DNA of 64,000 nucleotides from Massilia aquatica (lineage in GTDB: Bacteria; Pseudomonadota; Gammaproteobacteria; Burkholderiales; Burkholderiaceae_D), in NCBI RefSeq assembly GCF_011682045.1, contig NZ_VVIW01000008.1:1-64000 (forward strand), read 5' to 3'. Made by a program: the position numbers and the translations under genes. Each line of letters begins with the position of its first letter. The first letter of the stretch is position 1. Of the stretch, positions 4,055-21,501 are shown in pieces. Below the pieces are notes generated by a model. It saw only the letters and a list, made by a program, of their open reading frames with translations, was not told where the DNA came from and did not search any database.

Positions 4055-6668
4055 TATCCGCACGCTCATGGCCAAGCTGAACCCCGAATGCAAGCGCGCG
4101 ATGGGCCGCGCCGCCGAACTGTGCGTGCAGCAGACCCATTTCAACGTCGAACTGGAGCACCTTCTGTTGGCCCTTATCGATGCGGGCGCGCCGGACCTGA
4201 CGCTGGTGCTCGCGCACTTCGGCGTCGACATGGAGGCGGTGCGCACCCAAACCCAGGCCAGCCTTGACGGCTTCAAGCGCGGTAACAGCCGCACCCCAGC
4301 CATGTCGCCCAATTTCACTGCGCTGTTCCAGGAAGCCTGGCTGGTCGGCTCCATGCAGCTGGGCGTGCAGCAGATCCGTTCCGGCACCGTGCTGCTCGCC
4401 CTGCTGGAGCTTGACAGCCTGCGCGGCGCCTTGATCGAAACCGCCCCGGCCCTGCTCAAGCTTGGGCGCGACCGCCTGAAAGCCGACCTGGCGCAACTGC
4501 TGGCCGCATCACCCGAAGACGCCGGCCCCGCATCGGGCCCGCCCGCGGCGCCAGCCGGCGCATCGCCGGCGCTGGACCAGTACACCGTTGACATGACCGC
4601 GCTGGCACGCGCCGGACGCATCGATCCGGTGCGCGGGCGCAATGCCGAAATCCGCCAGATCATCGACATCCTGCTGCGCCGCCGCCAGAACAATCCCATC
4701 CTCACCGGCGAGGCCGGGGTCGGCAAGACCGCCGTGGTCGAGGGCTTCGCCTTGCGCGTGGCGGAGGGCAGCGTGCCGCCGGCGCTGGCCGATGTGCGGG
4801 TCTGCTCGCTCGACCTGGCGCTGTTGCAGGCCGGGGCCGGCGTGCGCGGGGAGTTCGAACATCGCCTCAAATCCGTTATCGCCGAGGTGCACGCGTCGGC
4901 CGCGCCGGTCATCCTGTTTATCGATGAAGCGCATCAGCTGATCGGCGCCGGCGGCGCCGAAGGGCAGGGCGATGCCGCCAACCTGCTCAAGCCGGCCCTG
5001 GCACGCGGCGAATTGCGGACCATCGCCGCCACCACCTGGGCGGAATACAAAAAGCATGTGGAACGTGATCCGGCACTGGCGCGCCGTTTCCAGGTGGTGA
5101 AGGTGGACGAGCCGACGCCGGAAGCGGCCATCGGCATGTTGCGCGGCATGGTGAACGTCCTGACCCGCCATCATCAGGTGGAAATCCTCGACGAAGCCGT
5201 GCGCGACGCGGTGCGCCTGTCGCATCGCTACATCACCGGGCGCCAGCTGCCCGACAAGGCGATCAGCGTGCTCGATACCGCCTGCGCGCGCGTCGCGCTG
5301 GCGCTGGCGGGCACGCCGCCGCAGCTCGAGTCGGTCGAGCACGACATCATGCTGGCGGCGGAAGAGTTGCGCATCCTGCGCCAGCAAATGGCGCGCGGCG
5401 AGGGCGGGTGTGCCCCGGCCGACCAGGCCGATGCCGCGCTGGGCCGGCTGCACGCACGCCGCGCACAGCTGCGCGACAAGCTCGCCGATGAACGGCGCGC
5501 GGTCGACGAGATCCTGGCCCTGCGCCGCCGCATCGCCGGGCGCAGCGGCGCCGCCGACGACCGGCAAGCCGACGCGGCCCAGCTGCAACGCCTGCAAAAG
5601 GGCCTGGAAACGATCCAGGACGGCGAAGCGCTGGTGCCGGTGTGCGTGGATTCGGCCACGGTTGCGCAGGTGATTTCGGGCTGGACCGGTATCCCGGTCG
5701 GCAAAATGCTGGCCGATGACATCCACACCGTGTTGCAGCTGCACGAGCGTCTGTGCGAGCGCGTGGTCGGGCAGGACCAGGCGCTCGACGCCATCGCCAG
5801 CCGCGTGCGCACCTTCCGCGCGGCGCTGGACGATCCGGGCAAGCCGGTGGGCGTATTCATGCTGGTCGGCCCCAGCGGCGTCGGCAAGACCGAAACCGCG
5901 TGCGCGCTGGCCGACATGCTCTACGGTGGCGAGCGCAATCTGATCACCATCAACATGTCCGAGTTCCAGGAGCCGCATGCCATCTCCAGCCTGAAAGGCG
6001 CGCCGCCGGGCTACGTCGGCTATGGTAAAGGCGGCGTGTTGACCGAGGCCGTGCGGCGCCGGCCCTACAGCGTGGTGCTGCTCGACGAGATGGAAAAAGC
6101 CCACCCGGACGTGCTTGAACTGTTCTTCCAGGTGTTCGACAAGGGCACCATGGATGATGGCGAGGGCGTGTCGATCGATTTCAAGAACACGCTGATCCTG
6201 CTGACATCGAACACGGCGCAGAACGTCATCGCCGACGCTTGCCGGGTAGCGCGGCCCGACGCGCCATCCCTGGTTGAGCGGCTGCGTCCGGCGCTGCTGC
6301 GCCAGTTCAGCCCTGCATTCCTGGGGCGCGTGGTGCTGGTGCCGTACTACCCGCTGGGCGACGCCGACATCGGCGTCATCGTCGACATGAAGCTCGCCAG
6401 GCTGGCCGAACGCTTCAGCGCCAATTACCAGGCGCGCTTGAGCTGGGACGACAGCGTCAGCGCCGCCATTGCCGCGCGTTGCACCGAGGTCGATAGCGGC
6501 GCGCGCAATATCGACTTCATCCTGACCCAGACCGTACTGCCCCAATTGGCGTCGCAGGTCCTGGAGCGCATGGCCACCGCGTCGGCCTTCAGCGCGGTCC
6601 ACATGCACGTCGATGGCGGCCAGTTCGCGTACCGCTTTCGCGACAGCCTGGCGCGGGGTGCGGCATGA
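4044..6668 (+). CDS. tssH: T6SS sheath-disassembly ATPase TssH (ClpV)
   Basis: ClpV is the Hsp100/ClpB-like hexameric unfoldase that dismantles contracted TssBC sheaths for reuse. This 874-residue protein has a Clp N domain (residues about 10-150), a first AAA+ domain with Walker A GEAGVGKT near residue 222 and Walker B ILFIDEAH near residue 290, a shortened coiled middle region, and a second AAA+ domain with Walker A VGPSGVGKTE near residue 609 and Walker B VVLLDEMEKAHP. The start at 4044 (MQVDIRTLMAKLN) is the typical ClpV N terminus and overlaps tssG. Its TssC substrate is not encoded in this window. Confidence 0.95.
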   Translation: MQVDIRTLMAKLNPECKRAMGRAAELCVQQTHFNVELEHLLLALIDAGAPDLTLVLAHFGVDMEAVRTQTQASLDGFKRGNSRTPAMSPNFTALFQEAWLVGSMQLGVQQIRSGTVLLALLELDSLRGALIETAPALLKLGRDRLKADLAQLLAASPEDAGPASGPPAAPAGASPALDQYTVDMTALARAGRIDPVRGRNAEIRQIIDILLRRRQNNPILTGEAGVGKTAVVEGFALRVAEGSVPPALADVRVCSLDLALLQAGAGVRGEFEHRLKSVIAEVHASAAPVILFIDEAHQLIGAGGAEGQGDAANLLKPALARGELRTIAATTWAEYKKHVERDPALARRFQVVKVDEPTPEAAIGMLRGMVNVLTRHHQVEILDEAVRDAVRLSHRYITGRQLPDKAISVLDTACARVALALAGTPPQLESVEHDIMLAAEELRILRQQMARGEGGCAPADQADAALGRLHARRAQLRDKLADERRAVDEILALRRRIAGRSGAADDRQADAAQLQRLQKGLETIQDGEALVPVCVDSATVAQVISGWTGIPVGKMLADDIHTVLQLHERLCERVVGQDQALDAIASRVRTFRAALDDPGKPVGVFMLVGPSGVGKTETACALADMLYGGERNLITINMSEFQEPHAISSLKGAPPGYVGYGKGGVLTEAVRRRPYSVVLLDEMEKAHPDVLELFFQVFDKGTMDDGEGVSIDFKNTLILLTSNTAQNVIADACRVARPDAPSLVERLRPALLRQFSPAFLGRVVLVPYYPLGDADIGVIVDMKLARLAERFSANYQARLSWDDSVSAAIAARCTEVDSGARNIDFILTQTVLPQLASQVLERMATASAFSAVHMHVDGGQFAYRFRDSLARGAA

Positions 6669-8701: not shown

Positions 8702-9379
8702 ATGAACACGACGATCGAGGAACACGACGACAACGGCCGCTTGCTGCTGCGCTGCGTCATGGCCGGCGGCGTGCTGCATGGCCCGCTCGAGGAGTTCGGC
8801 CCTTCCGGCCTTCCCGCGCTGACGGCCAACTTCGAGCACGGCAAGCTGCATGGCGCGATGGCGGTGTATGGCGCCGACGGCGCGCTGCTGCAGCGCAGCG
8901 TCTATTGCCACGGAATCGCAGACGGTTTGATGGAGACCTTCGTCAACGGGCGCAGGGTGGCGGCCCAGTGCATGGCCGGCGGTGTGGCCAGCGGCGTGTC
9001 GCTGTCGTTCGACGAAGCCGGCCACATGACGGCGCAGCTGGCGCTGGCGGACGGCAGGCTGGAAGGGGAAGCGCGCTTCTATCACGAGGGCCGCCATGTG
9101 CGCAGCGCCCACTACCGCGCCGGCCTGCTCGATGGCGAATCGGTCGACCATGACGCGCGCGGCGACGTGGTCCAGCGTTGCACCTACCGCGCCAATGTGC
9201 TGCATGGGCCGGTGCGGCGCTACTGGCCCGGCGGGGCGCTGATGGAAGAAACGCTGTATCGCGACGGCGTGCCCGATGGTGAACCAAGCCGCTTCAGCCA
9301 GCGCGGCAAGCGGCTGGGCAACGCCGCTGCGGCGCCGGCGCTGCTCGATCGTGTCAAACAACTGTTAAGGGGGGAATGA
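8702..9379 (+). CDS. MORN-repeat protein encoded between VgrG and the PAAR-like protein
   Basis: The 225-residue protein consists almost wholly of MORN_2-type repeats, with G-x-L/P-H/D-G units at roughly 20-24 residue spacing (GGVLHGPLEEF, GKLHGAMAVY, GIADGLMETF, GRLEGEARFY, GLLDGESVDH, NVLHGPVRRYW, GVPDGEPSRF). There is no signal peptide or membrane segment. It starts immediately after the vgrG stop and overlaps the next gene by 4 bases, so it is made with the spike. MORN_2 proteins occur in toxin-antitoxin and secretion contexts; an adaptor, immunity or cargo role in the T6SS is inference. No catalytic motif is visible. Confidence 0.8.
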   Translation: MNTTIEEHDDNGRLLLRCVMAGGVLHGPLEEFGPSGLPALTANFEHGKLHGAMAVYGADGALLQRSVYCHGIADGLMETFVNGRRVAAQCMAGGVASGVSLSFDEAGHMTAQLALADGRLEGEARFYHEGRHVRSAHYRAGLLDGESVDHDARGDVVQRCTYRANVLHGPVRRYWPGGALMEETLYRDGVPDGEPSRFSQRGKRLGNAAAAPALLDRVKQLLRGE

Positions 9380-9765
9380 TGGGACAACAAGTTTGCAGCG
9401 GGGCCGTGCTCAAGTGCTCGTTCGGCCTGGCGCCCGGCGTGCTCAATGTACTGCCGCTGAGCCAGGTGATGACCGCCATGCCGGACGCCAGCATCATGGA
9501 CAACAAGCCGATGGTCAATGTCATGCCGTTCGGGATGTGCACCTCGCTGGCCAACCCGCTGGTCGCGGCGGCGACCGCGGCGGCGCTGGGCGTGCTGGTG
9601 CCAATGCCGTGCATTCCGCTGACCACGGCGCCGTGGGTCCCCGGCTCGCCCACGGTCCTGGTGGGCGGCATGCCCGCGCTGAACAACGCGTCGAAGCTGA
9701 TGTGCATGGCCGGCGGCGTGATCGAGATCTGTGTGCCCGGTCAGGTGACCGTGGCGGTTCCTTAA
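9376..9765 (+). CDS. DUF4280 PAAR-like spike-tip protein
   Basis: The 129-residue protein has the DUF4280 signature: VCSGAVLKCSFG at residues about 6-17, then SIMDNKPMVNVMPFGMC, PMPCIPLT and a final SKLMCMAGGVIEI. DUF4280 and the related DUF4150 are PAAR-like domains that cap the VgrG spike and carry effectors. Several conserved cysteines could bind a metal. There is no C-terminal toxin extension, so it is probably a tip or adaptor rather than an evolved effector. The first ATG (9376) overlaps the MORN gene stop; ATG 9379 is the alternative. Confidence 0.85.
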   Translation: MMGQQVCSGAVLKCSFGLAPGVLNVLPLSQVMTAMPDASIMDNKPMVNVMPFGMCTSLANPLVAAATAAALGVLVPMPCIPLTTAPWVPGSPTVLVGGMPALNNASKLMCMAGGVIEICVPGQVTVAVP

Positions 9766-9783: not shown

Positions 9784-9969
9784 ATGATGGAATACCGATT
9801 CAACTTTACACCGCGCCTGGTGGCGCTGGGGCTGTTCACCGGCGTGGCGCTGTTGGTGCTACTGTTCTCGCTGGGTTTCCAGCTGGGCGTACGCATGGCT
9901 GCAGAGTCGCCCGCGCCCGCACCCGTCGCGCACGAACGCGTCGCAGCGGCGCCCAAGGCCGCGCCATGA
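9784..9969 (+). CDS. Small single-pass membrane protein inside the T6SS operon
   Basis: A 61-residue protein with a short polar N terminus (MMEYRFNFTPRL), one strong hydrophobic helix (residues about 12-35, VALGLFTGVALLVLLFSLGF) and a Pro/Ala-rich tail. It starts 18 bases after the DUF4280 gene and overlaps the solute-binding-protein gene by 4 bases (ATGA). It is not a known T6SS core part. It may partner the two membrane carriers downstream. The function is unknown, but the operon position and ribosome site (GGCGAGGCCA) make it a credible gene. Confidence 0.65.
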   Translation: MMEYRFNFTPRLVALGLFTGVALLVLLFSLGFQLGVRMAAESPAPAPVAHERVAAAPKAAP

Positions 9970-10847
9970 GCGCCGCTGCGACGTTAAAGGGTCTGCGGCC
10001 CCTGGCCTGGATGCACGCCGCCGTCCTGGCGGCCGGCCTGCTGGCCGGCGCCCCGGCCGCGTGCCAGGTCCGGGCAAGTGCTGCGTCGCCATTGGTGGTG
10101 ATGGCCGACGGCCGCCTGATGGCGCCCGATATCGCGCGCATCATCGAGCATGGTGAACTGGTGGTGGCCATGTTCAAGACCGACAGTCCGCCGTTTTTCG
10201 TGGAACGGAACGGCGTGCTGAGCGGGATAGACGTCGACCTGGCGCGCCTGATCGGCAAGGAACTGGGGGTGGCGGTGCGCTTCGACCGCAGCAGCGCCAC
10301 GGTGGACGGCGTGGTCGACATGGTCGGCAGCGGCCGCGCCGACCTGGCCATCAGCCGCCTTGGCCGCACGGTCAAGCGCAGCCAGATCGTGCTGTTCTCC
10401 ACGCCGTACCTGATGCTGGGCCACGCCATGCTGATCAACCGCTTGCGGATGGCCGAGATGTCCGGCGACCGGCCCGTGGCCCAGGTGGTGCGCACATTCA
10501 AGGGCCGCATCGGCGTGATCGCCAATACATCGTGGGAAGAATACGGCAGGCGCCACTTCCCGCAGGCCACCATCGTCACGTTTCCGGACTGGCCGGCGGT
10601 GGTCGACGCGGTGCGGCGCGGACAGGTCGCCGCGGCCTATCGCGACGAACTGGAGGTGCGCGCGGTGCTGCAGCGCGACCCGGGCCTGGCGCTGACGCTG
10701 CGCACGGTCACCTTCAACGACGCACAGTCCGCGCTCAGTGTGATGACCGGCGTGCGCGACACGTCCTTGCTGGCCTTCGTCAACGAAGTCATTGCATCGC
10801 GTACCGACAAGCCCAGCGTGAGCGCAGCGCTCACCTTGATCAAGTAG
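9966..10847 (+). CDS. Periplasmic solute-binding protein, family 3 (amino-acid type), inside the T6SS operon
   Basis: A 293-residue protein with a signal-peptide-like N terminus (hydrophobic run about residues 13-30) and one SBP_bac_3 fold: RIIEHGELVVAMFKTDSPPFF, then GIDVDLARLIGKELGVAV, GRADLAISRLGRTVKRSQIVLFSTPYL and a second-lobe FKGRIGVIANTSWEEYGRRHFP. These are the marks of polar-amino-acid binding proteins. The R of the ligand clamp (SRLGRTVKR) is present. No ABC permease or ATPase is nearby; two SDF-type carriers follow instead. The start at 9966 overlaps the preceding gene. A role in taking up solutes or sensing them during T6SS action is inference. Confidence 0.85.
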   Translation: MSAAATLKGLRPLAWMHAAVLAAGLLAGAPAACQVRASAASPLVVMADGRLMAPDIARIIEHGELVVAMFKTDSPPFFVERNGVLSGIDVDLARLIGKELGVAVRFDRSSATVDGVVDMVGSGRADLAISRLGRTVKRSQIVLFSTPYLMLGHAMLINRLRMAEMSGDRPVAQVVRTFKGRIGVIANTSWEEYGRRHFPQATIVTFPDWPAVVDAVRRGQVAAAYRDELEVRAVLQRDPGLALTLRTVTFNDAQSALSVMTGVRDTSLLAFVNEVIASRTDKPSVSAALTLIK

Positions 10848-10869
10848 TACCTCCATTGAAGGTGTTGCC

Positions 10870-12165
10870 ATGAACCAGACCGGAATCATTCCCGCCGTGC
10901 GCCGCTTCCAGGCCCTGGCCATCAATCCATGGATGGTGCTGGCGTGCGTCATGCTGGGGGCCGCGATCGGCTGGGCGGCGCCCGGCGCGGCCGGTCCGCT
11001 CGCCCTGGTCGGGGCGGTGTACGTTGACCTGCTGACCATGGTGGTGCTGCCGTTCATGATGTCGGCCGTCATCATGAGCCTGCAAAACCTGTACCGCGAG
11101 GGCGGGGCGGCCCGGATCGTCCAGCGCGTGGTGCTGGTATTTGCGCTGTTGGCCCTGGGCGCCGCGCTGGTCGCGACGGCCGCCACGCTGCTGTTTCACC
11201 CGGGCGGGGGCATGACCGACGACCTGCGCGCCACGCTGGGGCAGATCGTCGGCGGCGACATCGATCACGGCAACATGCCCATGTATCTGCTCACACCGGA
11301 ACCCTTGCCGCCCGGCGCGAGCGGACAGGACATCCTGCGCATGCTGATCCCGTCGAACATCTTCGCCGCCCTGGCCAATGGCGAAACGCTCAAGGCGCTG
11401 GTGTTCGCCCTGCTGTTCGGCTTCGCGGTCGGGCAAGTCCCGACCCGCCTTGCGACCGGCCTGCAGGACGCGCTGGAGACCGTCTACAGCGCCTGCCAGA
11501 CGCTGACCCGCTGGATCAATCTGCCGTTGCCGCTGATCCTGGTGTGCATGACGGCCGGCCAGGTGGCGCGCACCGGTGTCGGACCGCTGGCCGCCATGGC
11601 CGGCTTCGTGATCGGCTTTCTGGCGGTCAGCGTGCTGGTCATCGTGCTGGCGCTGTTGCTGGTGCGCCATCGCGCGGGCGGCACCGTCGGCGCCGTCGCC
11701 GCGGCGCTGCGCGAACCTTTTGCGCTGGGCGTGGCGACCAATAACAGCGCCGCCTGCATGCCGGCCATGGTCGCGGCCATGGTCGAGCGCCTCGGTTTTG
11801 CGCGCAACCGGGTCGAACTGCTGGTGCCGCTCAGCGTCGCACTGCTGCGTGCCGGTCCGGTCGCCTACTTCGCTTGCGGTTCCCTGTTCATTGCGGCGCT
11901 GTACGGACGCGCCCTGAGCCCCGCGGACCTGGTTTTGCTGGTGGTGCTGGCCGCGCTGGCGGGGTTTGCCTCGTCCGGCATGGCCGGTCTGGTGACGGTG
12001 TCGCTGATGGGCGCCGTGTGCACCGGCCTGTCGCTGCCGTTCGAGGCAGCCTTTGTGCTGTTCATGGCGGTCGATCCGATCTGCGCCATGGCGCGTACGG
12101 CGGTGACCGTGATCGTCGATTGCGCAGCGGTGTCGCTGGTGTGCGCGCGCCCGGTTCAGTTATAG
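10870..12165 (+). CDS. SDF-family (dicarboxylate/amino acid:cation symporter) membrane protein, divergent
   Basis: A 431-residue polytopic protein of the DAACS/SDF family (GltP-like). The N-terminal half has the family layout with VGAVYVDLLTMVVLPFMMSAVI. In the C-terminal half the SSSATLP hairpin tip is replaced by ATNNSAACMPAM, the NMDGT motif that builds sodium sites is replaced by LRAGPVAYF, and the NxxGD of the last helix by VIVDC. It is therefore a structural homologue with a changed transport core. It follows the solute-binding protein by 22 bases. It may use other ions or ligands, or act as a sensor or channel; the sequence does not decide. Confidence 0.85.
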   Translation: MNQTGIIPAVRRFQALAINPWMVLACVMLGAAIGWAAPGAAGPLALVGAVYVDLLTMVVLPFMMSAVIMSLQNLYREGGAARIVQRVVLVFALLALGAALVATAATLLFHPGGGMTDDLRATLGQIVGGDIDHGNMPMYLLTPEPLPPGASGQDILRMLIPSNIFAALANGETLKALVFALLFGFAVGQVPTRLATGLQDALETVYSACQTLTRWINLPLPLILVCMTAGQVARTGVGPLAAMAGFVIGFLAVSVLVIVLALLLVRHRAGGTVGAVAAALREPFALGVATNNSAACMPAMVAAMVERLGFARNRVELLVPLSVALLRAGPVAYFACGSLFIAALYGRALSPADLVLLVVLAALAGFASSGMAGLVTVSLMGAVCTGLSLPFEAAFVLFMAVDPICAMARTAVTVIVDCAAVSLVCARPVQL

Positions 12166-12174
12166 GAGATGAGC

Positions 12175-13584
12175 ATGAAACTGTTGACGCACATGAGACG
12201 GCATCCGGCCGCCTTGCTCGGTACATTGCTGCTGGGGCTCTGGGTGGGCGCGCTGTGGCCGGGCGGCGCCGGGCTGTTCGCCGCCTTGTCGGGCATTTAT
12301 CTGGCGCTGCTGCAAGCCTTCGCGCTGCCGTACATCGTGCTGGCCGTGTATTTCGGACTACAGCGCATGCCGGCCGCCGGCGCCCGCTGGCGGCGCTGGC
12401 TGGCGCTGACGGTGCCGGCGCTGCTGGCGATGCCGCTGTGCGCGCTCGGCGGTGTGCTGCTGGCCGGGGTCAGTGCGGCCGGCACCGGCCTGGACCTGCC
12501 GCAGCAGACCGCCCTGGGACGCATGGCGCTGGGCGCGGGCGACGCGGCAATGAGCTTGTACGGCGCCGACCCGCCACTGGCGGCAACGTCGCAGATCGCG
12601 CAATTCGTGCCGCGCAACCTGTACGCGGTGCTGGCGGCCGGCGCGCTGCCTTCGGTGCTGATCGGCGTGCTGCTGTTCGGGGCGGCCGTGGCGGTGCAGC
12701 GGCGCGACGCAAGCAATCAGCTGAGTATCATTCTGGAAGCGGTGTATCGGGCACTGGAAACGGCCATCGGCTCGCTCAATGCCGGCCTGCCGCTGATCGC
12801 CTTTGTGCTTGCCGCCGCGGCCAGTGCGGGCGCGGGGAAGGGATCGAGCGGCCTGCTGATCGGCTTTCTTGCCACCTGGCTGGCCGCGGTGCTGCTAGCC
12901 AGCCTGGCGGCGGGCGCGCTGCTCTGCTGGCGTCTGAAGGCGCACCCGTGGACGGTGCTGACGGCCTTGCGCGAACCGGTCACGGTGTGCCTGTTTACGC
13001 CGGCCGGGGCAGCGGCGCTGCCGGAATTTATCGCCGCGCTGAGCGTGCGGCTCGGCTTGCGGCGCGGCGCGTCGGAGCTGGTGATGCCGGTGGCGCCCGT
13101 GTTCGTGCGCTGCGGCGAAGCGCTGTTTTTTGCGGTGCTGGCCGTGTTCATCGCCAATTTGTACGGGCGGCCCTTGACGCTGGGCGAGTGCGGCATGGTG
13201 GTGCTGCTGGCGTGCTGGAGCGCGCTGTGCTCGATCGGCACGGTCGGGGTCAAGACGGTCCTGTGGTCGGGCGTGCTGCAAGCGTCGCTGGGCTTGCCGA
13301 TGGAAGCGCTGCTGCCGTCGCTGGCCGCGGTCGAGGTGCTGTGCGCCGGACCGCGCAACCTGGTGACCTACCTGAGCGCCGCCGTGCTGGTGGCGCTGGT
13401 GTCGACCGCGCGCCCGCTGCAAACGGCGGTGCTGCGTGCGGCCGAGCCGGCGCCCGTGTGGCCGATGGTGCTGTCGCGGCGCCAGGCCTGGCTGAGCGCC
13501 AGTCTGCTCACGGCCGCTTTGCTGGCCTTCTTCGGCGCCGGCGTCGGCTTCGGCCTGCGCAAGATGCTCATGCCTGGTTTGTAA
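12175..13584 (+). CDS. Second divergent SDF-family membrane protein
   Basis: A 469-residue polytopic paralogue of the preceding carrier. Shared layout includes LSGIYLALLQAFALPYIVLAVY near the N terminus, LREPVTVCLFTPAGAAALPEF at the first hairpin position, and VRCGEALFFAVLAVFIANLYG at the place of the NMDGT helix, so the canonical sodium motif is also lost here. The start at 12175 is preferred because AGGAG lies 6 bases upstream; the ATG at 12169 abuts it. It ends about 40 bases before tssJ. Two unequal copies in tandem suggest a heteromeric membrane assembly, which is inference. Confidence 0.8.
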   Translation: MKLLTHMRRHPAALLGTLLLGLWVGALWPGGAGLFAALSGIYLALLQAFALPYIVLAVYFGLQRMPAAGARWRRWLALTVPALLAMPLCALGGVLLAGVSAAGTGLDLPQQTALGRMALGAGDAAMSLYGADPPLAATSQIAQFVPRNLYAVLAAGALPSVLIGVLLFGAAVAVQRRDASNQLSIILEAVYRALETAIGSLNAGLPLIAFVLAAAASAGAGKGSSGLLIGFLATWLAAVLLASLAAGALLCWRLKAHPWTVLTALREPVTVCLFTPAGAAALPEFIAALSVRLGLRRGASELVMPVAPVFVRCGEALFFAVLAVFIANLYGRPLTLGECGMVVLLACWSALCSIGTVGVKTVLWSGVLQASLGLPMEALLPSLAAVEVLCAGPRNLVTYLSAAVLVALVSTARPLQTAVLRAAEPAPVWPMVLSRRQAWLSASLLTAALLAFFGAGVGFGLRKMLMPGL

Positions 13585-13625: not shown

Positions 13626-14147
13626 ATGCGATTCATACTTTTTCACAGATGGTACCGCCTCGCTGCCGTGCTGGTCGCCGTTGCAACGCTGGCCGCTTGC
13701 GGCGCTGTCGCGGGCGCGCGCGCGCTGGTGGGCCTGGCGCCCGCGCCGGCCAAACCTGGCTGGACCAGCGTGACGCTGGCCGCCGCCGCCGACGCCAATG
13801 CCGACAGCGCGCTGGCGATCGACATCGTGCTGGTCAAGGACAAGGCCCTGCTCGAGAGCCTGTCGGCGATGTCGGCAGCGAGGTACTTCGGCGCGCGCGC
13901 CGACCTGCAACGCACGTTCCCCGACGCGCTCACCGTGCTGGCGATCGAAATGACGCCGGGACAGCAAATCCGGATCGACGGCCAGCGCTTCGGCAAGCAG
14001 CGCGCCTGGGGCGCCCTGGTCTTTGCCAACTACGCCAGCCCCGGCGAGCACAGGCTGCGCCTGCCGCTCGACAGCCAGGGCTATGTGCTGCATTTGAACG
14101 CGCAAGCGTTCATTGCCAGCGATATCAAGCCGGGCAGCGCCCGTTAA
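13626..14147 (+). CDS. tssJ: T6SS outer-membrane lipoprotein TssJ
   Basis: TssJ anchors the TssLM membrane complex to the outer membrane by binding the TssM periplasmic tip. The 173-residue protein has a lipoprotein signal (hydrophobic VLVAVATLAAC, Cys about residue 25). The mature domain carries the family pattern: DIVLVKDKALLESLSAMSAARYFGARADLQRTFP, then MTPGQQIRI and LVFANYASPGEHR. The start at 13626 follows a GGAGAAACC ribosome site. It restarts the T6SS core genes after the carrier insert, and its position before tssK-L-M agrees with the usual order. Confidence 0.88.
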   Translation: MRFILFHRWYRLAAVLVAVATLAACGAVAGARALVGLAPAPAKPGWTSVTLAAAADANADSALAIDIVLVKDKALLESLSAMSAARYFGARADLQRTFPDALTVLAIEMTPGQQIRIDGQRFGKQRAWGALVFANYASPGEHRLRLPLDSQGYVLHLNAQAFIASDIKPGSAR

Positions 14148-14163: not shown

Positions 14164-15495
14164 ATGGCCGAAGCACAACTGTACGACCGTATCCAGTGGC
14201 ACGAGGGCATGCTGCTCAGTCCACAGCAGTTCCAGCAGGAGAGCGCGCGCGTCGATGCGCTGGTCGGGTGGCAGTCGCTGGCGGGCCAGCCGGCTGCCTG
14301 GGGGGTGCGCCGGCTGGTGCTGGACGAGGCGCGCCTGACCACCGGCACGCTGCGCATCCTGGCGCTCGAAGCGATCCTCCCGAACGGCATGGCGGTCCAT
14401 TTCGATGCCGCGCGGGCCTGCGAGCACGAGCTGGAACTGGACCTGGCGCCGTATGCGCAGCGCATGGAGCAAGGCGATCTGGCGGTCTATCTGGCGGTCG
14501 GCGCGGCGCGCGCGCTCAATCTGCCGGGCCGGCCCGCCATGTTCCGCGGCCTTGAGGGCGGCAGCGTCGACGACGAGGTGTCGCAGGCGTTCGCTTGCGA
14601 GGTGCCGCGCATGACGGCCAATCTGCAGCTCATCGCAGGCAAGGCGCCCGGCGCCGCGTATGTCGCGCTGCACCTGGCGAATCTGCGCAAAGAGAACGAA
14701 ATTGTGCGGCGCGGCGCGTTCTGGCCTGCCCAGCTGGAAGTGCCGGGCGACGCCAGCCTGTGCCGCCGCGCGGGCGAGCTGGCGGCGCACATGCGCAGCA
14801 AGGCGCTGTTCCTGGCGCGTCAGAACGTGGCGCCATCGTCGCGCCTGGAAGACCGTCTGGCGCTGCTCGAGCAGCAAAACCGGCTCACTGGCCTGGTGCT
14901 GCACCTGCCACTGCTCGAAGCGGTGCTGCGCGCGCCGGTACTGCAGCCGCAACCGTTGTACCTGGCGCTGTGCGCCCAGTTGGGACCGCTTGCGGCGCTG
15001 CGCCCCGGCACGGTGCCGATGGCGCCGCCGCCGTACCGCCACGCCGACAGCTACGCCGCGTTCGACGCCGTGCTGCTGGCCTTGCAGGATCTGGTCGACG
15101 ACGTCAGCCAGGACTGGAAGAGCTGCACCTTCGACTTCGACGGCCAGGCGTTCACGCTGCCGATGCGCGCAGAGTGGCTCGGCAAGCGCCTGGTGGTGGG
15201 CATGCGCGGCCACGGCGAGCGCGAGCTGGGGCAGTGGATGGGGGGCGCCGTGATCGGCTCGCGCACCATCTGGACCTCGCTGTGCGAGCGCCGCATGCTG
15301 GGCGCGGCGCGCACCAGGATCGACGACGCCCCGGAACTGGGCTTGCGCGCCAGCGCCGGTTACACCTTGTTCGGGGTCGATACCTCGGACCAGTTCATCG
15401 TTGCCGACCAGGCGCTCCAGATCAGCAATATCAACGAACACCTGGCCGCCAATCGGCCGCAGGAACTTGTCCTGTTCATCAAAGGCTCACCATGA
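14164..15495 (+). CDS. tssK: T6SS baseplate-to-membrane connector TssK
   Basis: TssK is the trimeric cytoplasmic protein that docks the baseplate to TssL and TssM. The 443-residue protein starts MAEAQLYDRIQWHEGMLLSPQQFQQ, the classic TssK N terminus (xxxVxWxEGMFLxPQHFQQ). The C terminus carries the head-domain ending NINEHLAANRPQELVLFIKG. The start at 14164 is chosen from this motif even though the frame is open further upstream. It ends with an ATGA overlap into tssL. Confidence 0.94.
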   Translation: MAEAQLYDRIQWHEGMLLSPQQFQQESARVDALVGWQSLAGQPAAWGVRRLVLDEARLTTGTLRILALEAILPNGMAVHFDAARACEHELELDLAPYAQRMEQGDLAVYLAVGAARALNLPGRPAMFRGLEGGSVDDEVSQAFACEVPRMTANLQLIAGKAPGAAYVALHLANLRKENEIVRRGAFWPAQLEVPGDASLCRRAGELAAHMRSKALFLARQNVAPSSRLEDRLALLEQQNRLTGLVLHLPLLEAVLRAPVLQPQPLYLALCAQLGPLAALRPGTVPMAPPPYRHADSYAAFDAVLLALQDLVDDVSQDWKSCTFDFDGQAFTLPMRAEWLGKRLVVGMRGHGERELGQWMGGAVIGSRTIWTSLCERRMLGAARTRIDDAPELGLRASAGYTLFGVDTSDQFIVADQALQISNINEHLAANRPQELVLFIKGSP

Positions 15496-16259: not shown

Positions 16260-19200
16260 TGAAGTTTCTGTCCGATAACCTGGCTATCGCCACGCTGTTG
16301 CTGGTGACGCTGCTGGTGCTGATCCTGCTTGGTCTGATTATCAACGCGGCCTTGCGCGGGACGGCCCAGGGCGGCGCCGCCCCGGCCGACAGCAAGCTGC
16401 GCACGCTGGGCGCGGAGTCGCTGCGCCAGTCCTTTCGCAGCGCGGTTGAACTGATCGAATCGAACCTGGCCGCGCGCCACGAGCGTTACAAGCTGTCGTG
16501 GACCTTGCTGCTCAACGACAGCGCGCAACGCCCGTTGCCGCTGGCGCAGTCCGGCCTGCCCAGCGCGCTGAGCGCCGACAGTACCCTGAGCGCGGCCGCG
16601 CAAGGCATCGACTGGCATTTCTTCGACAGCGGCGTGATCGTCCAGCTGCAGACCGGGCACCTCGGTTCGCCCGATCCCGACAGCGCCTCGAGTAACGGGG
16701 TGTGGGACGATTTTCTGGGCCTGTGCCGCAACTACCGGCCGCAGCGCCCGTTCGACAGCATCGTGCTGGCGGTGCCGTGCGCGGCCCTGCTGCAAACCGA
16801 CCCGCAAGGCCAGCTCGACCTGATGGCGCGCGCCAAGGCGATTCACCGTCGCCTTTGGCTGGCGCAAAATCGCCTGGCGCTGCGCTTCCCGATCTATCTG
16901 GTGGTGTCCGAATGCGAAGCGCTGCCGGGCTTTGCCAACTTTGGCGGCGCGTTGCCCGAGGCGCTGCGCAGATCGATGCTGGGCTGGTCGTCGCCCTACG
17001 AACTGGTGGCGCCGTTTCGCACCCAGTGGGCCGACAGCGCCATGGACGACATCGTGCGGGCGGCAAGCGATCACTGCGCGGAACTGAGCGCACTGGAGCC
17101 GCCCGGCGCCGACAGCAGCGCTTACCTCATGCTGCCCGGAGAACTTGAACGCCTGCGCTGCGGCCTCAAGCTGTTCTGCGAAGAGCTGATGCGGCCCAGC
17201 GCCTATCATGAGCCGTTCCTGTTGCGTGGCATGTACCTGAGCGGCGACAGCAGCGACGCGGCCGCACTGCTTGCCGTCATGCCGGCAGCGCCCACCGGTG
17301 CGCTGGCCGCACTTTCGCTGGCCGCGCCAGGATCGGGCGAGCCCGCGGCAGCGGCCACGGCGGACGCGATGCCGGTCTTCATGCGCGATATTTTCGAGCG
17401 CAAGGTGTTTGCCGAAGCGGGGCTGGTGCAGTCCTGCTCGCAGCGCATGCGCCGCCCTGCCGCGAGCCGCGTGGCGTCCTGGGCGGTGCTGGCACTGCCG
17501 CTGCTGTGGGCCGCCGCACTGGTCGTCTCCACCGTACGCCTGCACCAACTGGGCGGCGACCTGGTGGGCTATCTGAACGCGCTCAATAGCGATACCCGGC
17601 GCAGCCTGCACACTGCGCGCACCGGCATGGACGATGCCCGGCGCAGCCAGAAGCGCGCCACCGACGCGCTGCTCACTATCGAGCAACTGGGGAGCGCGCG
17701 TTTCAATTCGGTCTTCATGCCCGGTTCATGGCCGCTCTTCGACGATCTGCACCAGCGCGTGGTTGGCCGGCTCGAGCAGGGCTTTGCCGACAACGCCTTT
17801 GACCCGTTGCGGCGCGCCGCGTTCAGCCGGCTGGGCCAATTGACGGGGGTGCCGATCGAGCCGGTCTCCGGCGCGCTGATCGGCGGCGCCGAATGCACGA
17901 TGCCCGCTGGCTGGAGCGAACAGGTGGCCGCGCAAAGCGGGAGCGCACTCAATGTCGACGACTTGCCGCAGTTCGGGGCCACCCTGGGGTATCTGGCGCG
18001 CCTGGACGAACTCGATCGCGTGATCGGCGCGATGCTGCGGCTCAAGCATGCCGATGCCGGGCCGGCGTCGGGCACCGATCTGGCGCTGGTGGTGCGGGTC
18101 CTGCTTGGCGCCGAGCTCAATGGCGCTCCGGCGCGGACCGCCGCGCTGTTTCGGGCCGTGGCACAGCGCGAGCCGTCGCTGGCGCTCGAACCGATGCAGG
18201 CGGCGGCGCGCTGTTCGCTGCGACGGGCCAGCACGGCGCTGTACCAGCGCCTGTTCGACGATAACGGCTTGCTGCGTTCGGAGCGCCTTGTGGCCGCCAG
18301 CAGCGCCGCGCTGTTCGCCGGCGCCCAGCCTGGCGCCGGGCTGGCTGGCCAGCTGCCGGCGTGGCACGCGCTACGCGACGCGCTCAACTTTCAGCAGAGT
18401 CAGCTCGCCGGGGGCAAGGGTGGCTGGATGATACAGAGCAGCGTCAACCTCGGCGCCGCGCACGAGATCATGATGGAGCGTATCGGCGCCAATTCCCTGC
18501 TGGGAAAATCCGCCGTGCAGGAAACGCGGCGGCGCGTGGCGGAGGGCTTTGGACGCTTTGTCGTGGCCAGGGATACCGCGCTGTCGGCGCCCAGTCCGAT
18601 CGACGGCACGGCCGACAACCTGGTGTGGTCTGGCGGCGCCTGGGCATTCTCGCCGCCGCGCCAGGCGTTGCAAGCGTCGGTGGCGGCGCTGCTGGCGCAA
18701 CCGTGGATGAGCGCCGGCGGGCCGGCGCAGCTGCCGACGCTGGCGCGCGGCGCCACCGTCAGCTGGAACAAGGCGCTGCTGGAGCAGGCGATCGGGCTTG
18801 CCGAGGCGCGCAAGCGCTTCCAGGCCGGTCCTTTCATGGCGCTGCCGGCCAGGCTCCAGCAACCGGCCGCCGCCCTGGCCGACCTGGCGCTGGCCGCGAA
18901 TGCGCAACGGCTGTTGATGCAGGCGCTCAGCGTGGCCCCGGTCGAGCTGCCCAGTGGCGCCAGCGATGCCGAACGCGCCAGCGTGCTGCGGGTGCGTGCC
19001 TGGCTGCTGGAAATCGGAGCAGGCGATGTCAGCGCGGAGCTGGACGCGGTGCTGGTGGCCGATGCGTTGTCGCGCCTTCAGCGTCTGGACGACATCGTCA
19101 GCGGGGCTGAGGTGTTCGTGCCGCGCGAGCGCACGTTCCAGACGTGGAACGGCGAAAAAGGTGTCCTGCTCGACGCCTTTGGCAATGGCGACGCCGCCGT

Positions 19201-20389
19201 GCTTGCCGCCTACGTCGCCCAGCAGCATGAGTTTGTCGATACAGCGGCCAGCCAGGCCGAAGGCGTGCTGGCGCAGCTGGCCGGTTTCGCCACCGGCAAC
19301 CCCATGGTGACACGCTGGCAAGCCATCGTGGCGGACTTGCGCCGCCATCGGCTCAAGAGTCCGGCCAGTTCGCTGATGGCGCTGGAGCAGTTCATTCTCA
19401 GCGGCAGTGCCGATATCGACCTGGGCAACTGCACCGACAAGCTCGGTTCACGCGGCGTGCAGCGGCGTGGCGCCGATGTCTTTGCCGAACGCTTGCTCAA
19501 TCTGCAGAACGGCGTGCTGGCGCGCTGCCGCGAGCTGGCGGCCGGCCGCTACCGGGAGGAGTGGGAGCGCTTTGCCGGGTTGTACAACCGCGACCTTGCG
19601 CGACGGGCACCGTTCGACGCGCGTCCGAACGGCGTGGCGCTGCCGGCCGACCGGGACGCGGTGGGGGCGGCGATGCAGCAGTTTGACCGGGCGCGTGCGG
19701 CCGCTGCGCTGGCCGAGCGCGAGCCAGGCATGGCAGGCGCGCGCGCCCCGGTGCGCGAGGCAGGCGAGCAGCTGCGCCACATGCGCGAGGTGCTGGCGCC
19801 GTTGTATCCGGTCGAACCGGGGCAGGCGGGCGGGCTGGACGTGACGGTGCAGTTTCGCCCCGCAGGCGTGCCCGATGCCGGGGCCAACCAGATCATCGAC
19901 TGGAGCCTGGCCATCGGGGCGGGTACGCTGCGCCTTGGCGAGCCTGCACGCGCACTGCGCTGGGAACCAGGCACGCCGGTAATGCTGTCGCTGCGCCTGG
20001 CGCGCGACGGCAGCGGACAACCCCGGGCCGAGCCGGGCCACGTCAATATGACGGTCACTGATCGCACCGTGAACTATCGCTTTGACGATCCATGGGCGCT
20101 GTTCAGTTTTATCGGCGCTTACCGCGAAAACGAGGTGGCCGAGGGCGATCGCCGCGGTCCGCTGCTGCGCTTTGAATTTCCCGTGCTGCACACTGGCCCG
20201 GGTGTGAACGTGGTGCCGCTGGCGGCGCGCACACGCGTGTTCCTGCGTCTGGGTGTGAGCGCGCCGGGCAAGCGTGCGCCGCTGGCCTGGCCCACGGTCT
20301 TCCTGGCGCATGTGCCAGCCTGGCAGGACGCGGCGCTGAGCAGCAGCGCCGCGCTGTTACCCAACCAACTTGAAGCGAATGCCAAATGA
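16256..20389 (+). CDS. tssM: T6SS inner-membrane core TssM (IcmF), lacking a Walker A motif
   Basis: TssM spans the inner membrane and periplasm and contacts TssJ. The 1377-residue protein has one N-terminal membrane helix (residues about 8-35, not the usual pair), an IcmF cytoplasmic domain, a further membrane helix near residues 405-425 (ASWAVLALPLLWAAALVV) and a large periplasmic part ending in the DUF1215/IcmF C-terminal beta domain. At the place of the usual Y-x-L-P-W-x-x-x-x-G-x-x-x-x-GKT loop it reads YKLSWTLLLNDSAQRPLPL, so the P-loop is absent and NTP hydrolysis is unlikely. It overlaps tssL and tssA by 4 bases. Confidence 0.93.
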   Translation: MMKFLSDNLAIATLLLVTLLVLILLGLIINAALRGTAQGGAAPADSKLRTLGAESLRQSFRSAVELIESNLAARHERYKLSWTLLLNDSAQRPLPLAQSGLPSALSADSTLSAAAQGIDWHFFDSGVIVQLQTGHLGSPDPDSASSNGVWDDFLGLCRNYRPQRPFDSIVLAVPCAALLQTDPQGQLDLMARAKAIHRRLWLAQNRLALRFPIYLVVSECEALPGFANFGGALPEALRRSMLGWSSPYELVAPFRTQWADSAMDDIVRAASDHCAELSALEPPGADSSAYLMLPGELERLRCGLKLFCEELMRPSAYHEPFLLRGMYLSGDSSDAAALLAVMPAAPTGALAALSLAAPGSGEPAAAATADAMPVFMRDIFERKVFAEAGLVQSCSQRMRRPAASRVASWAVLALPLLWAAALVVSTVRLHQLGGDLVGYLNALNSDTRRSLHTARTGMDDARRSQKRATDALLTIEQLGSARFNSVFMPGSWPLFDDLHQRVVGRLEQGFADNAFDPLRRAAFSRLGQLTGVPIEPVSGALIGGAECTMPAGWSEQVAAQSGSALNVDDLPQFGATLGYLARLDELDRVIGAMLRLKHADAGPASGTDLALVVRVLLGAELNGAPARTAALFRAVAQREPSLALEPMQAAARCSLRRASTALYQRLFDDNGLLRSERLVAASSAALFAGAQPGAGLAGQLPAWHALRDALNFQQSQLAGGKGGWMIQSSVNLGAAHEIMMERIGANSLLGKSAVQETRRRVAEGFGRFVVARDTALSAPSPIDGTADNLVWSGGAWAFSPPRQALQASVAALLAQPWMSAGGPAQLPTLARGATVSWNKALLEQAIGLAEARKRFQAGPFMALPARLQQPAAALADLALAANAQRLLMQALSVAPVELPSGASDAERASVLRVRAWLLEIGAGDVSAELDAVLVADALSRLQRLDDIVSGAEVFVPRERTFQTWNGEKGVLLDAFGNGDAAVLAAYVAQQHEFVDTAASQAEGVLAQLAGFATGNPMVTRWQAIVADLRRHRLKSPASSLMALEQFILSGSADIDLGNCTDKLGSRGVQRRGADVFAERLLNLQNGVLARCRELAAGRYREEWERFAGLYNRDLARRAPFDARPNGVALPADRDAVGAAMQQFDRARAAAALAEREPGMAGARAPVREAGEQLRHMREVLAPLYPVEPGQAGGLDVTVQFRPAGVPDAGANQIIDWSLAIGAGTLRLGEPARALRWEPGTPVMLSLRLARDGSGQPRAEPGHVNMTVTDRTVNYRFDDPWALFSFIGAYRENEVAEGDRRGPLLRFEFPVLHTGPGVNVVPLAARTRVFLRLGVSAPGKRAPLAWPTVFLAHVPAWQDAALSSSAALLPNQLEANAK

Positions 20390-21501
20390 ACGCGATACCT
20401 GATTTTCCCGTCGACGAGGTGGACCGGCAGCTTGTTGCTGACATTCTTGCGCCGCTGGCGCCCGATGCACCCTGCGGCGCGCAAGTACGCTTCGATCCCG
20501 TCTTTACCGAAATACGCCTGCTGCGCGACGAGGATGACCCCAGCCTGCCAATGAGGCAATGGGAGCGGCCGCTCAAGGTGGCCGACTGGGCGCAGATCGA
20601 TGCGTTGTGCACGCAGATGCTGTGCACGCGCTCCAAACACCTCCAGTTTGCCGCATGGCTGATTGAGTCATGGATGCGCCAGCGCGGCTTTGCCGGCCTG
20701 TGCCAGGGACTGGGAATGCTTGAGGCGCTGTTGCGCCGCTATTGGGACTCGATCCATCCGATGATCGACGAGGAGGGTGACTGCGAGCTGCGCCTGGCGC
20801 CGTTGGAGTGGCTCAATGAATCGCTCAGCGTCGACGTGCGCATCCACGCGGTGCTGCTGCCACTGGCCCAGTGCAAGCCGCCATGCCTGACGCTGGCGGA
20901 CTGGGAGCGCATGTCGGCGCAAGATCCGACCGGTCCAGACGAGAAAGCGCGTGGCGAGGCGCACGGCAACCCCGACTCCCAGCTCACGCGGGCCGCTGTC
21001 CTGGCCGGTGCCGCCCAGTCGCAGGCGCAGCTTTGCGCGACGCGCTCTGCCGTCGCGCAAAGCCGCGAAACGTTGTCCGCGATAAGCACCTTGCTCAATG
21101 AACGGCTGGGGGATGAGGCGCCCAATATGTCACGCCTGCTGTCGACGCTGGAAGCTGCCGAGCGCGTGCTGGTGCAATTGCATCCTGAACTGAAAGCGAC
21201 TGACATGGAAAACCAACCCGTACTTGAAACCGTGCTTCCCAACACTGGTGCGATGCCCGTGCCGGCGCACAGCGCCGCCGACGTGACCTTCTCCGGCTGG
21301 CGCAACCGCGCTGAAGCCTATGTGACGCTCGACGCGCTGGCACGCTATTTGATGGAGCTTGAACCACACAGTCCCGTTCCGTTTCTTATACGGCGCGCGC
21401 TACATTGGGGCAGCATGCCTTTGCCGGAACTGATCACCGAAATCATCAAGGAGGAGGGCGACCTGAACCGGCTGGTGGGGGTTCTTGGATTGAAGATGTA
21501 G
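20386..21501 (+). CDS. tssA: T6SS assembly protein TssA
   Basis: TssA primes baseplate and sheath assembly. The 371-residue protein has an ImpA N-terminal domain (residues about 20-135, with SLPMRQWERPLKVADW, CTRSKHLQFAAWLIESW and a YWDSIHPMIDEEGD-like stretch) and a C-terminal helical part ending EPHSPVPFLIRRALHWGSMPLPELITEI, the short C-terminal type. It overlaps tssM by 4 bases and is the last gene of the T6SS operon here. No clear intrinsic terminator follows in the 118 bases before the convergent regulator. Confidence 0.92.
   Translation: MNAIPDFPVDEVDRQLVADILAPLAPDAPCGAQVRFDPVFTEIRLLRDEDDPSLPMRQWERPLKVADWAQIDALCTQMLCTRSKHLQFAAWLIESWMRQRGFAGLCQGLGMLEALLRRYWDSIHPMIDEEGDCELRLAPLEWLNESLSVDVRIHAVLLPLAQCKPPCLTLADWERMSAQDPTGPDEKARGEAHGNPDSQLTRAAVLAGAAQSQAQLCATRSAVAQSRETLSAISTLLNERLGDEAPNMSRLLSTLEAAERVLVQLHPELKATDMENQPVLETVLPNTGAMPVPAHSAADVTFSGWRNRAEAYVTLDALARYLMELEPHSPVPFLIRRALHWGSMPLPELITEIIKEEGDLNRLVGVLGLKM

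What the first reader, a model, noticed from the sequence alone, without database searches (positions are those of the whole stretch)
9784..13584. Solute-binding protein plus two SDF-type carriers and a small membrane protein inserted in a T6SS operon
Between the spike module and tssJ lie a 61-aa membrane protein, a family 3 amino-acid-binding protein and two tandem SDF-family membrane proteins, joined by short gaps or overlaps and on the same strand as the T6SS genes. Binding proteins of this family normally feed ABC permeases, and SDF carriers normally need no binding protein. The insert may be a binding-protein-dependent secondary uptake or sensing system tied to the T6SS, for example to recover amino acids from lysed prey or to sense them. 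No described T6SS core includes these parts.
Basis: partly seen in the sequence, partly recalled or inferred. Interest (0 to 1): 0.8.

Follow-up and report, generated by a model that had tools for sequence, protein, structure and literature searches.

The report
Amino-acid carrier cassette in T6SS operon
Inside the gene cluster for a bacterial contact weapon sits a three-gene cassette - a periplasmic amino-acid catcher and two unusual membrane carriers - that a number of related bacteria share and some have lost as one piece, which suggests that this weapon works beside a dedicated system for taking up, exchanging or sensing amino acids.

Summary
In detail: a DUF4280 (PAAR-like) gene, a 61-aa membrane protein, an SBP_bac_3 protein and two SDF carriers lie head to tail before tssJ. 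The block is not accidental. Of 80 loci holding the first carrier (SDF1), 80 have the binding protein just upstream and 63 have tss genes in the flank. Two relatives with the same T6SS lack exactly SBP-SDF1-SDF2 but keep the small protein, so the cassette is three genes and accessory. It is partly in print: Hug et al. 2021 (PMC8356804) described it in Paraburkholderia, with an Asp/Glu racemase between the carriers. Not found in print: SBP-SDF1 also occurs alone, some copies beside a racemase, a formyltransferase-like enzyme or a cyclase; racemase and formyltransferase co-occur in 0 of 80 loci; the carrier's amine-binding Asp is kept in 46 of 46 racemase loci and lost in 26 of 26 formyltransferase loci; the Na+-site motif is replaced by an Arg/Lys. 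Best reading: a binding-protein-linked, probably ion-uncoupled elevator carrier for an acidic amino acid or derivative, for uptake or exchange beside the T6SS. Ligand, direction and T6SS contact are untested.

The parts
8702..9379 (+). MORN_2-type (YwqK-like) protein, 225 aa, directly after vgrG (tssI)
   Evidence: Pfam MORN_2 E 4e-6, below Pfam's cut-off; conserved in the same place in related T6SS loci; the name YwqK is that given by Hug et al. to the gene in this place
9376..9765 (+). DUF4280 (PAAR-like) protein
   Evidence: Pfam DUF4280 E 9e-34
9784..9969 (+). 61-aa single-pass membrane protein; belongs to the T6SS side
   Evidence: found by a sequence pattern after DUF4280 in 57 of 58 loci that hold DUF4280; retained in two relatives without SBP-SDF1-SDF2; alignment
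9966..10847 (+). family 3 solute-binding protein (SBP); predicted amino-acid pocket residues R138 and D227
10870..12165 (+). SDF1, glutamate-transporter-fold carrier
11845..11859 (+). SDF1 TM7 motif L326-R327-A328-G329-P330 in place of the canonical NMDGT
   Evidence: alignments
12085..12096 (+). SDF1 TM8: A406 (GltPh D394 position) to R409 (GltPh R397 position)
12169..13584 (+). SDF2, second carrier, seen with the T6SS-linked form of the cassette
   Evidence: Pfam SDF E 5e-30; present in 61 of 63 T6SS loci (the other two contigs end too soon) and 0 of 13 stand-alone loci with sequence downstream
13426..13581 (+). C-terminal extra membrane segment of SDF2
   Evidence: hydrophobic segment after TM8 in 64 of 64 SDF2 proteins scored, two fragments left out; profile similarity to the 61-aa protein family
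13626..14147 (+). tssJ
   Evidence: Pfam T6SS-SciN E 0.0016, below cut-off; syntenic in relatives
14164..15495 (+). tssK
   Evidence: Pfam T6SS_VasE E 2e-29
16400..20389 (+). tssM
   Evidence: Pfam IcmF-related_N E 6e-49
20386..21501 (+). tssA-like; the formyltransferase-like gene found between tssM and tssA in L019 and 13 other loci (L020-L032) is absent here
   Evidence: Pfam ImpA_N E 3e-36

Best explanation
SBP-SDF1-SDF2 is an accessory carrier cassette of one T6SS lineage (T6SS-b, family i4a according to Hug et al.). SHOWN by sequence: SBP and SDF1 form a conserved pair that also exists without a T6SS nearby; SDF2 accompanies it in the T6SS-linked form; the three genes are absent as one unit in two relatives whose T6SS is otherwise the same. 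INFERRED: the SBP catches an acidic alpha-amino acid in the periplasm and serves SDF1, an elevator carrier whose Na+ site is replaced by a fixed Arg/Lys, so that it works as a uniporter or exchanger and not as a Na+ symporter. In most relatives examined a cytosolic enzyme, an Asp/Glu racemase or in its place a formyltransferase-like protein, acts on the same compound. Beside a T6SS this would recover acidic amino acids released by lysed neighbours. In this genome I found no linked enzyme, and the carrier pocket is of the formyltransferase type.
For: Pairing: SBP directly upstream of SDF1 in 80 of 80 loci; distance median 18 nt, at most 60 nt in 81 of 82, a 4-nt overlap in 14 of 82, with the SDF1 start chosen as the one nearest the SBP stop. 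T6SS link: 63 of 80 loci. Absence as a unit: L098 and L099; in the family sample 12 of 14 genomes with a tssK at 61% identity or more have SDF1 and these two do not. Constraint: dN/dS against L018 is 0.19 (SBP), 0.19 (SDF1), 0.33 (SDF2), against 0.25 (tssK). Pocket: SBP R138 in 72 of 72 and D227 in 70 of 72 enzyme-linked loci; SDF1 R397 position Arg in 82 of 82. Ion site: GltPh position 310 is Asn and 312 Asp in 0 of 82; position 311 is Arg/Lys in 81 of 82 SDF1 and 64 of 64 SDF2, against the canonical motif in L003 of the same genome. Enzyme link: racemase 45, formyltransferase-like 26, both 0, neither 9 of 80; SBP-SDF1-racemase also in two genomes of other families of the phylum (L114, L115) and, after a cyclase, in two genomes of the window's own family with a 41-44% identical SDF1 (L120, L121). 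Enzyme and pocket covary: the D394 position is Asp in 46 of 46 racemase loci and Ala/Thr in 26 of 26 formyltransferase loci. PMC12668577 (passages) gives the roles of these residues. PMC12344293 (passages) proposes another elevator carrier linked to an SBP.
Against: No transport, binding or expression data for these proteins. No SBP-SDF fusion was found (only the 7997 candidates sharing most words were scored), although a figure legend in PMC2950845 lists an SDF domain in a network of SBP-type proteins. In the formyltransferase type SDF1 has lost the amine-binding Asp while the SBP keeps its own (D227 in 24 of 26), so the two pockets may not see the same molecule. The enzyme-pocket covariation rests on one change in the tree. 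T6SS linkage needs at least 7 changes in the same tree, so the T6SS is not required. P. phymatum T6SS-b promoter activity was highest on citrate and low on glutamate (PMC8356804, section 13), which does not single out acidic amino acids. Stand-alone copies next to cyclases suit sensing as well as uptake.
Confidence: 0.5

Rival explanations
1. Sensor (transceptor): SBP and the non-canonical SDFs no longer move much substrate but report a periplasmic amino acid to the cell and thereby tune T6SS expression or firing, as Hug et al. suggested for dicarboxylates.
For: Loss of the ion-coupling motif in both carriers. Stand-alone SBP-SDF1 pairs lie beside adenylate/guanylate cyclases in L047, L049, L072, L096, L120 and L121, and one lies near the pair in L116; a Cache sensor domain was confirmed by Pfam in the two scanned, L096 and L120, not in L116. 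L072 and L096 add cNMP-binding and Tad-pilus genes. In P. phymatum a Ser/Thr kinase gene lies upstream of the T6SS-b cluster (PMC5732942, passage). SDF2 carries an extra C-terminal membrane segment whose profile resembles the small T6SS membrane protein (hhalign probability 94).
Against: The cyclase query hit none of the 63 T6SS loci; kinases and other regulators were not searched for. The racemase points to metabolism of the substrate. In P. phymatum the T6SS-b promoter did not follow C4-dicarboxylates in a consistent way (PMC8356804, section 13), and no carrier mutant is described in the sections read.
Confidence: 0.27
2. Exporter: the linked enzyme makes a D-acidic or N-formyl amino acid in the cytosol and the uncoupled carrier lets it out down its gradient, as a signal, cell-wall precursor or anti-competitor compound; the SBP binds the precursor or the signal.
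For: The enzyme swap coincides with the loss of the carrier's amine-binding Asp and of the Arg at the GltPh R276 position; an uncoupled carrier suits outward flow; the racemase is closest among solved structures to putative aspartate racemase 3s7z. A link between self-made D-Lys and T6SS defence in Acinetobacter is recalled, not from a call.
Against: SBPs normally serve uptake; this window has neither enzyme nearby, so nothing obvious would be exported; one evolutionary event only.
Confidence: 0.13
3. Passenger: the cassette was inserted into an ancestral T6SS operon and is kept only because it shares the promoter; no functional link to secretion.
For: The same SBP-SDF1 pair exists without tss genes nearby (15 of 80 loci, two of them open); two relatives lack the cassette and keep the T6SS.
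Against: Position is conserved across many genera; three loci keep the cassette next to a rearranged, oppositely oriented T6SS (L034, L036, L042); SDF2 was not seen in the 13 stand-alone loci; purifying selection.
Confidence: 0.1

Closest known systems
T6SS-b cluster of Paraburkholderia phymatum (Bphy_5978-5997; Hug et al. 2021, PMC8356804)
   Same: Same order: vgrG, YwqK, PAAR-like, small hypothetical, SBP ('amino acid ABC transporter'), SDF, SDF, T6SS membrane genes. Their Janthinobacterium example lacks the racemase, like loci L018-L032 here.
   Different: P. phymatum has an Asp/Glu racemase between the carriers; this window has none, nor do its 15 nearest T6SS loci, L018-L032. The sections read treat the carriers as possible dicarboxylate carriers or sensors and do not mention stand-alone modules, the formyltransferase-like gene or loss of the ion site.
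TAXI-GltS binding-protein-dependent carrier (Jaques et al. 2025, PMC12344293, passages)
   Same: A periplasmic SBP gene coupled to a secondary carrier proposed to be of elevator type, for glutamate.
   Different: There the SBP is TAXI type and the carrier GltS; here SBP_bac_3 and SDF. They report gene fusions; I found none. A search of that paper's main text for SDF, DAACS and GltP gave 0 hits.
GltPh / SDF (DAACS, SLC1) glutamate transporters
   Same: Fold, and the Arg that reads the side-chain carboxylate (R397).
   Different: NMD motif lost, Arg/Lys at position 311, Asp at 394 lost in the window's clade.
TRAP and TT tripartite transporters
   Same: Principle of SBP plus secondary carrier.
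   Different: Different SBP and carrier families (by name; not compared here).
Cupriavidus necator T6SS1 (Reut_A1713-A1733) with effector TeoL (PMC8776902, passages)
   Same: Hug et al. list C. pinatubonensis JMP134 among T6SS-b carriers; counting genes, TeoL (Reut_A1725, after vgrG1) would be the MORN/YwqK gene of this layout (inference, not verified). That T6SS serves iron acquisition from vesicles.
   Different: The main text has 0 hits for symporter, racemase and solute and for MORN, YwqK and PAAR.

Membership tests
SDF/DAACS glutamate-transporter family | SDF domain and GltPh-like fold | tested here: met
SDF/DAACS glutamate-transporter family | Na+-coupling signature (N310, M/S311, D/E312, D/E405; PMC12668577) | tested here: not met
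   L326, R327, A328 in the window; 0 of 82 SDF1 have N310 or D312; 81 of 82 have Arg/Lys at 311. The 405 position is Asp in the window (D417) and in 1 other row, not generally. Positions 92-93 not examined
SDF/DAACS glutamate-transporter family | H+-coupling signature (L311, N405, hydrophobic 92; PMC12668577) | tested here: not met
   position 311 is Arg, not Leu; the 405 position is Asn in 44 of 46 racemase-type rows but Asp in the window. Position 92 not examined
SDF/DAACS glutamate-transporter family | acidic amino-acid pocket (R397 and D394) | tested here: inconclusive
   R409 kept; the D394 position is A406 in the window
SBP-dependent secondary transporters | SBP gene adjacent to and coupled with the carrier gene | tested here: met
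   80 of 80 loci; distances
SBP-dependent secondary transporters | SBP-carrier gene fusions | tested here: inconclusive
   none among 6 hits at E <= 1e-10 (4 of the 6 sequences read); a legend in PMC2950845 hints at one
SBP-dependent secondary transporters | transport requires the SBP | not testable with these tools
   needs reconstitution
T6SS-b accessory block of Hug et al. 2021 | SBP and two SDF genes between the PAAR-like gene and the T6SS membrane genes | tested here: met
T6SS-b accessory block of Hug et al. 2021 | Asp/Glu racemase between the carriers | tested here: not met
   3-nt gap between SDF1 and SDF2; the one racemase match in the own genome is 28% identical and on another contig. 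Their own Janthinobacterium example lacks it too
T6SS effector-immunity pair | toxin domain and cognate immunity protein after vgrG/PAAR | tested here: inconclusive
   Pfam assigns transport families to SBP, SDF1 and SDF2; no effector library was searched

The most novel reading that the evidence does not exclude
A further class of binding-protein-dependent elevator carrier (SBP_bac_3 + SDF), in which a fixed Arg/Lys replaces the Na+ site, is paired with a swappable enzyme (Asp/Glu racemase or N-formyltransferase) whose product sets the carrier's pocket, and is docked to the T6SS through SDF2, whose extra C-terminal membrane segment derives from a small T6SS membrane protein, so that an amino-acid-derived compound is moved or sensed at the T6SS.
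Probability: 0.15. Interest if true: 0.85.

Novelty: new variant of a known kind. Interest (0 to 1): 0.6.

Why it matters
It makes two open questions testable. Jaques et al. [quoted passage not shown] SBP-SDF1 is a candidate with natural variants. And it gives a concrete handle on why some T6SSs carry nutrient or sensing genes in their operon: a removable three-gene unit, with two natural absences as controls.

Tried and rejected
The reading that the block occurs only here was rejected. A four-gene block including the small protein was rejected. An SBP-SDF fusion was sought with a joined query and not found. SDF1 was folded with AlphaFold2 from 16 sequences; confidence was too low (pLDDT 55.8) to place side chains, so no geometry is claimed. 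The SBP structure search gave many amino-acid SBPs and receptors with tied Z (about 18-20), so it does not name a ligand. The small-protein/SDF2-tail similarity (score 37.3 against at most 24.7 in 60 local shuffles, whose probability reached 63.5 once with a median of 3.3) is carried by the racemase-type clade (probability 90.8); with formyltransferase-type rows alone, the window's own clade, it vanishes (2.3). I therefore lean on it only in the novel case and, as a hint, under the sensor rival.

Paper searches, with papers found and listed: T6SS + symporter/solute-binding terms 35, 20 listed; T6SS + racemase + symporter 11, all listed; T6SS + aspartate racemase 0; SBP + secondary transporter + TRAP + DAACS 49, 12 listed; T6SS + D-amino acid terms 19, 10 listed; T6SS + formyltransferase 50, 10 listed; GltPh evolution 14, 8 listed; T6SS-b of phymatum 14, 10 listed; Cupriavidus T6SS 122, 10 listed; SBP/symporter/racemase terms 45, 15 listed. 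Beyond Hug et al. no listed title or abstract reported the points claimed as new. The lists are capped and most subscription journals are not held.

Rows dropped or relabelled: L074 left out of the SDF1 tree and residue counts (reading frame broken in extraction); 2 of 66 SDF2 extracts left out as fragments (105 and 303 aa); L060 and L076 are short contigs, counted in the 80 as neither T6SS nor stand-alone but labelled T6SS in the tree; L052 and L057 end just after SDF1 or the racemase, so absence of SDF2 there is not evidence; L033 and L037 end just after SDF2, so their T6SS status is open though the tree labels them stand-alone. The 80 loci are the best 80 of 94 found with two SDF1 motifs, one of which (DP[ILV]CAMAR) favours the window's clade, so shares among the 80 are not population frequencies. 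Against a strict SDF2-T6SS link: in distant genomes L118 and L119 parts of the carrier score best with an SDF2 query at 31-32% identity.
Full report
What is there. The window shows tssE-F-G-H-I, a MORN_2-type (YwqK-like) gene, DUF4280 (PAAR-like), a 61-aa membrane protein, an SBP_bac_3 protein, two SDF carriers, tssJ-K, a tssL placed by frame and synteny, tssM and a tssA-like gene on one strand. SBP overlaps the small gene by 4 nt, SDF1 follows after 22 nt, SDF2 after 3 nt, tssJ after 41 nt. The contig starts at the window's first base, 831 bases before tssE. A tssC (PF05943) lies near the start of contig C21 of the same genome, next to genes that I read by eye as tssB and hcp and to a partial ISL3 transposase; that C21 joins the window's contig is inferred. 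A second tssC lies on contig C14.

How widespread. A scan of genome contigs with an SDF1 alignment gave 80 loci (best 80 of 94). tblastn of the window's genes on these loci found SBP directly upstream of SDF1 in 80 of 80. tss genes lie in the flank (up to 10 kb each side) in 63 of 80; 2 are contigs too short to say; 15 have none, of which 2 end just after SDF2. SDF2 is present in 61 of the 63 T6SS loci (the other two end too soon) and in 0 of 13 stand-alone loci with sequence downstream. In evenly drawn genome samples SDF1 is rare: 14 of 294 of the family at E <= 1e-60, 5 of 399 of the order at E <= 1e-50, 9 of 398 of the phylum at E <= 1e-45. These samples share some genomes, and only 4 or 5 first-look candidates per genome were scored.

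Absence as a unit. Of the family sample, 14 genomes have a tssK at 61% identity or more; 12 of them have SDF1. The other two, G212 (T6SS proteins 69-91% identical) and G210 (57-78%), carry the same cluster with the small protein followed by tssJ and without SBP, SDF1 and SDF2. So the three genes behave as one unit and the T6SS persists without them.

The enzyme partner. In 40 of the 63 T6SS loci an Asp/Glu racemase (PF01177 in the two scanned) accompanies the cassette, between SDF1 and SDF2 in those read. In 17 a formyltransferase-like gene (PF00551 in the three scanned, one of them in a T6SS locus) is present; in L019-L032 it lies between tssM and tssA, in L034, L036 and L042 between SDF2 and tssM. 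Of all 80 loci 45 have the racemase, 26 the formyltransferase, none both, 9 neither. On an SDF1 tree of 82 rows (quick IQ-TREE, several long branches) the enzyme label needs 1 change among labelled rows and T6SS linkage 7. Two genomes of other families of the phylum have SBP-SDF1-racemase with no match to the window's tss genes in the 18-20 kb fetched (L114, L115), and two of the window's own family with a diverged SDF1 have cyclase-SBP-SDF1-racemase (L120, L121), so the racemase form looks ancestral. This window and L018 have neither enzyme nearby; the own genome gave no formyltransferase match at E <= 0.01 (no positive control in that search) and one 28% identical racemase match on another contig.

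The carriers. SDF1 and SDF2 belong to the glutamate-transporter family, but the NMD motif that in GltPh is the nexus of Na+ and substrate binding (PMC12668577, passages) is gone. Position 310 is Asn and 312 Asp in 0 of 82 SDF1; 311 is Arg or Lys in 81 of 82 SDF1 and 64 of 64 SDF2. The canonical SDF L003 of the same genome keeps N310, D312 and D394. The Arg that reads the side-chain carboxylate (R397) stays in 82 of 82 SDF1. The Asp that reads the amine (D394) is Asp in 46 of 46 racemase loci and Ala (23) or Thr (3) in 26 of 26 formyltransferase loci; the R276 position is Arg in 46 of 46 against Asn (24) or Ser (2) in 26 of 26. The ten rows without either enzyme split by clade: D394 in 6, Ala in 4, the window among the latter. 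Nine of 425 SDF1 columns separate the two enzyme groups completely; three are the 276, 394 and 401 positions. In the SBP 5 of 256 columns do so, among them 133 and 190, which by my alignment to LAO (numbers recalled) fall at its S72 and Q122. Because there is one enzyme swap in the tree, this is one correlated event and not repeated evidence.

The binding protein. The AlphaFold2 model (pLDDT 83.5) matches amino-acid SBPs and ionotropic glutamate receptor domains. R138 is kept in 72 of 72 and D227 in 70 of 72 enzyme-linked loci, which are the alpha-carboxylate and alpha-amine contacts of such proteins (recalled). The six long relatives found are tandem SBPs or carry a PG_binding_1 domain; none carries SDF.

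Stand-alone contexts. L047, L049, L072 and L096 have SBP-SDF1 after a cyclase and the formyltransferase; L072 and L096 add Tad-pilus and cNMP-binding genes; L035, L045 and L046 are followed by a TAXI/NMT1-like SBP, a secretin and, by clustering, a pentapeptide protein. Pfam was run on one representative of most of these gene groups. The contexts suggest that the pair has repeatedly been placed beside envelope machines or signalling enzymes.

SDF2 and the small protein. SDF2 has an extra hydrophobic C-terminal segment in 64 of 64. Its profile aligns to that of the small membrane protein over 40 columns with hhalign probability 94; five control profiles reach at most 6.5, and 60 local shuffles reach a score of at most 24.7 against 37.3. 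The signal comes from racemase-type loci and is not seen within the window's own clade. If real, it is a hint that SDF2 touches the T6SS.

What is known. Hug et al. 2021 (PMC8356804; sections 12 and 13 and part 1 of section 18 read) described YwqK, PAAR-like, hypothetical, SBP, SDF, racemase, SDF in P. phymatum T6SS-b, found the cluster in 15 further strains, noted a Janthinobacterium without the racemase, and proposed dicarboxylate sensing; T6SS-b promoter activity was highest on citrate. De Campos et al. 2017 (PMC5732942, passages) suggest an operon from unpublished data and mention a Ser/Thr kinase gene upstream. Jaques et al. 2025 (PMC12344293, passages) describe TAXI-GltS and state that only TRAP and TT transporters were known before to work with a soluble SBP. 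In the searches listed under Tried and rejected I found no report of an SBP-linked SDF carrier, of the enzyme swap, or of the Na+-site loss.

Judgement. Ordinary part: the T6SS link is real and already in print. New part: the module, its stand-alone copies, its enzyme swap with matching pocket change, and its lost ion site. I favour uptake or exchange of an acidic amino acid or derivative (0.5) over sensing (0.27).

Noticed in passing
L124 (G000:C21:1-12000), positions 1538-2571 and 3991-6643; window 1-831: tssC and genes that look like tssB and hcp lie near the start of another contig, followed by a partial ISL3-type transposase before the contig end; the window's contig starts 831 bases before tssE. 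An insertion element may sit between hcp and tssE, or only break the assembly.
   Followed up: partly
G000:C14:97490-98398: A second tssC (VipB), so the genome probably has two T6SSs.
   Followed up: no
window 8702-9379: By gene count the MORN/YwqK gene sits where the LPS-binding T6SS effector TeoL (Reut_A1725) sits in Cupriavidus necator T6SS1; it may be a TeoL relative. Not verified.
   Followed up: partly
L115:5151-8313: A distant SBP-SDF1-racemase module lies near an RpiR-type regulator, an EPSP-synthase-family (MurA-like) enzyme and a BadF-type ATPase, which hints at cell-wall or amino-sugar metabolism.
   Followed up: no
L116:3506-8043: Two SDF genes lie back to back in opposite orientation, each after an SBP gene (one recognised by tblastn, the other by eye), beside a cyclase with AAA and TPR domains.
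   Followed up: no
P0121-P0123, P0125: Relatives of the SBP are fused to a peptidoglycan-binding domain (P0123, P0125) or doubled in tandem (P0121; P0122, named Thiorhodovibrio).
   Followed up: no
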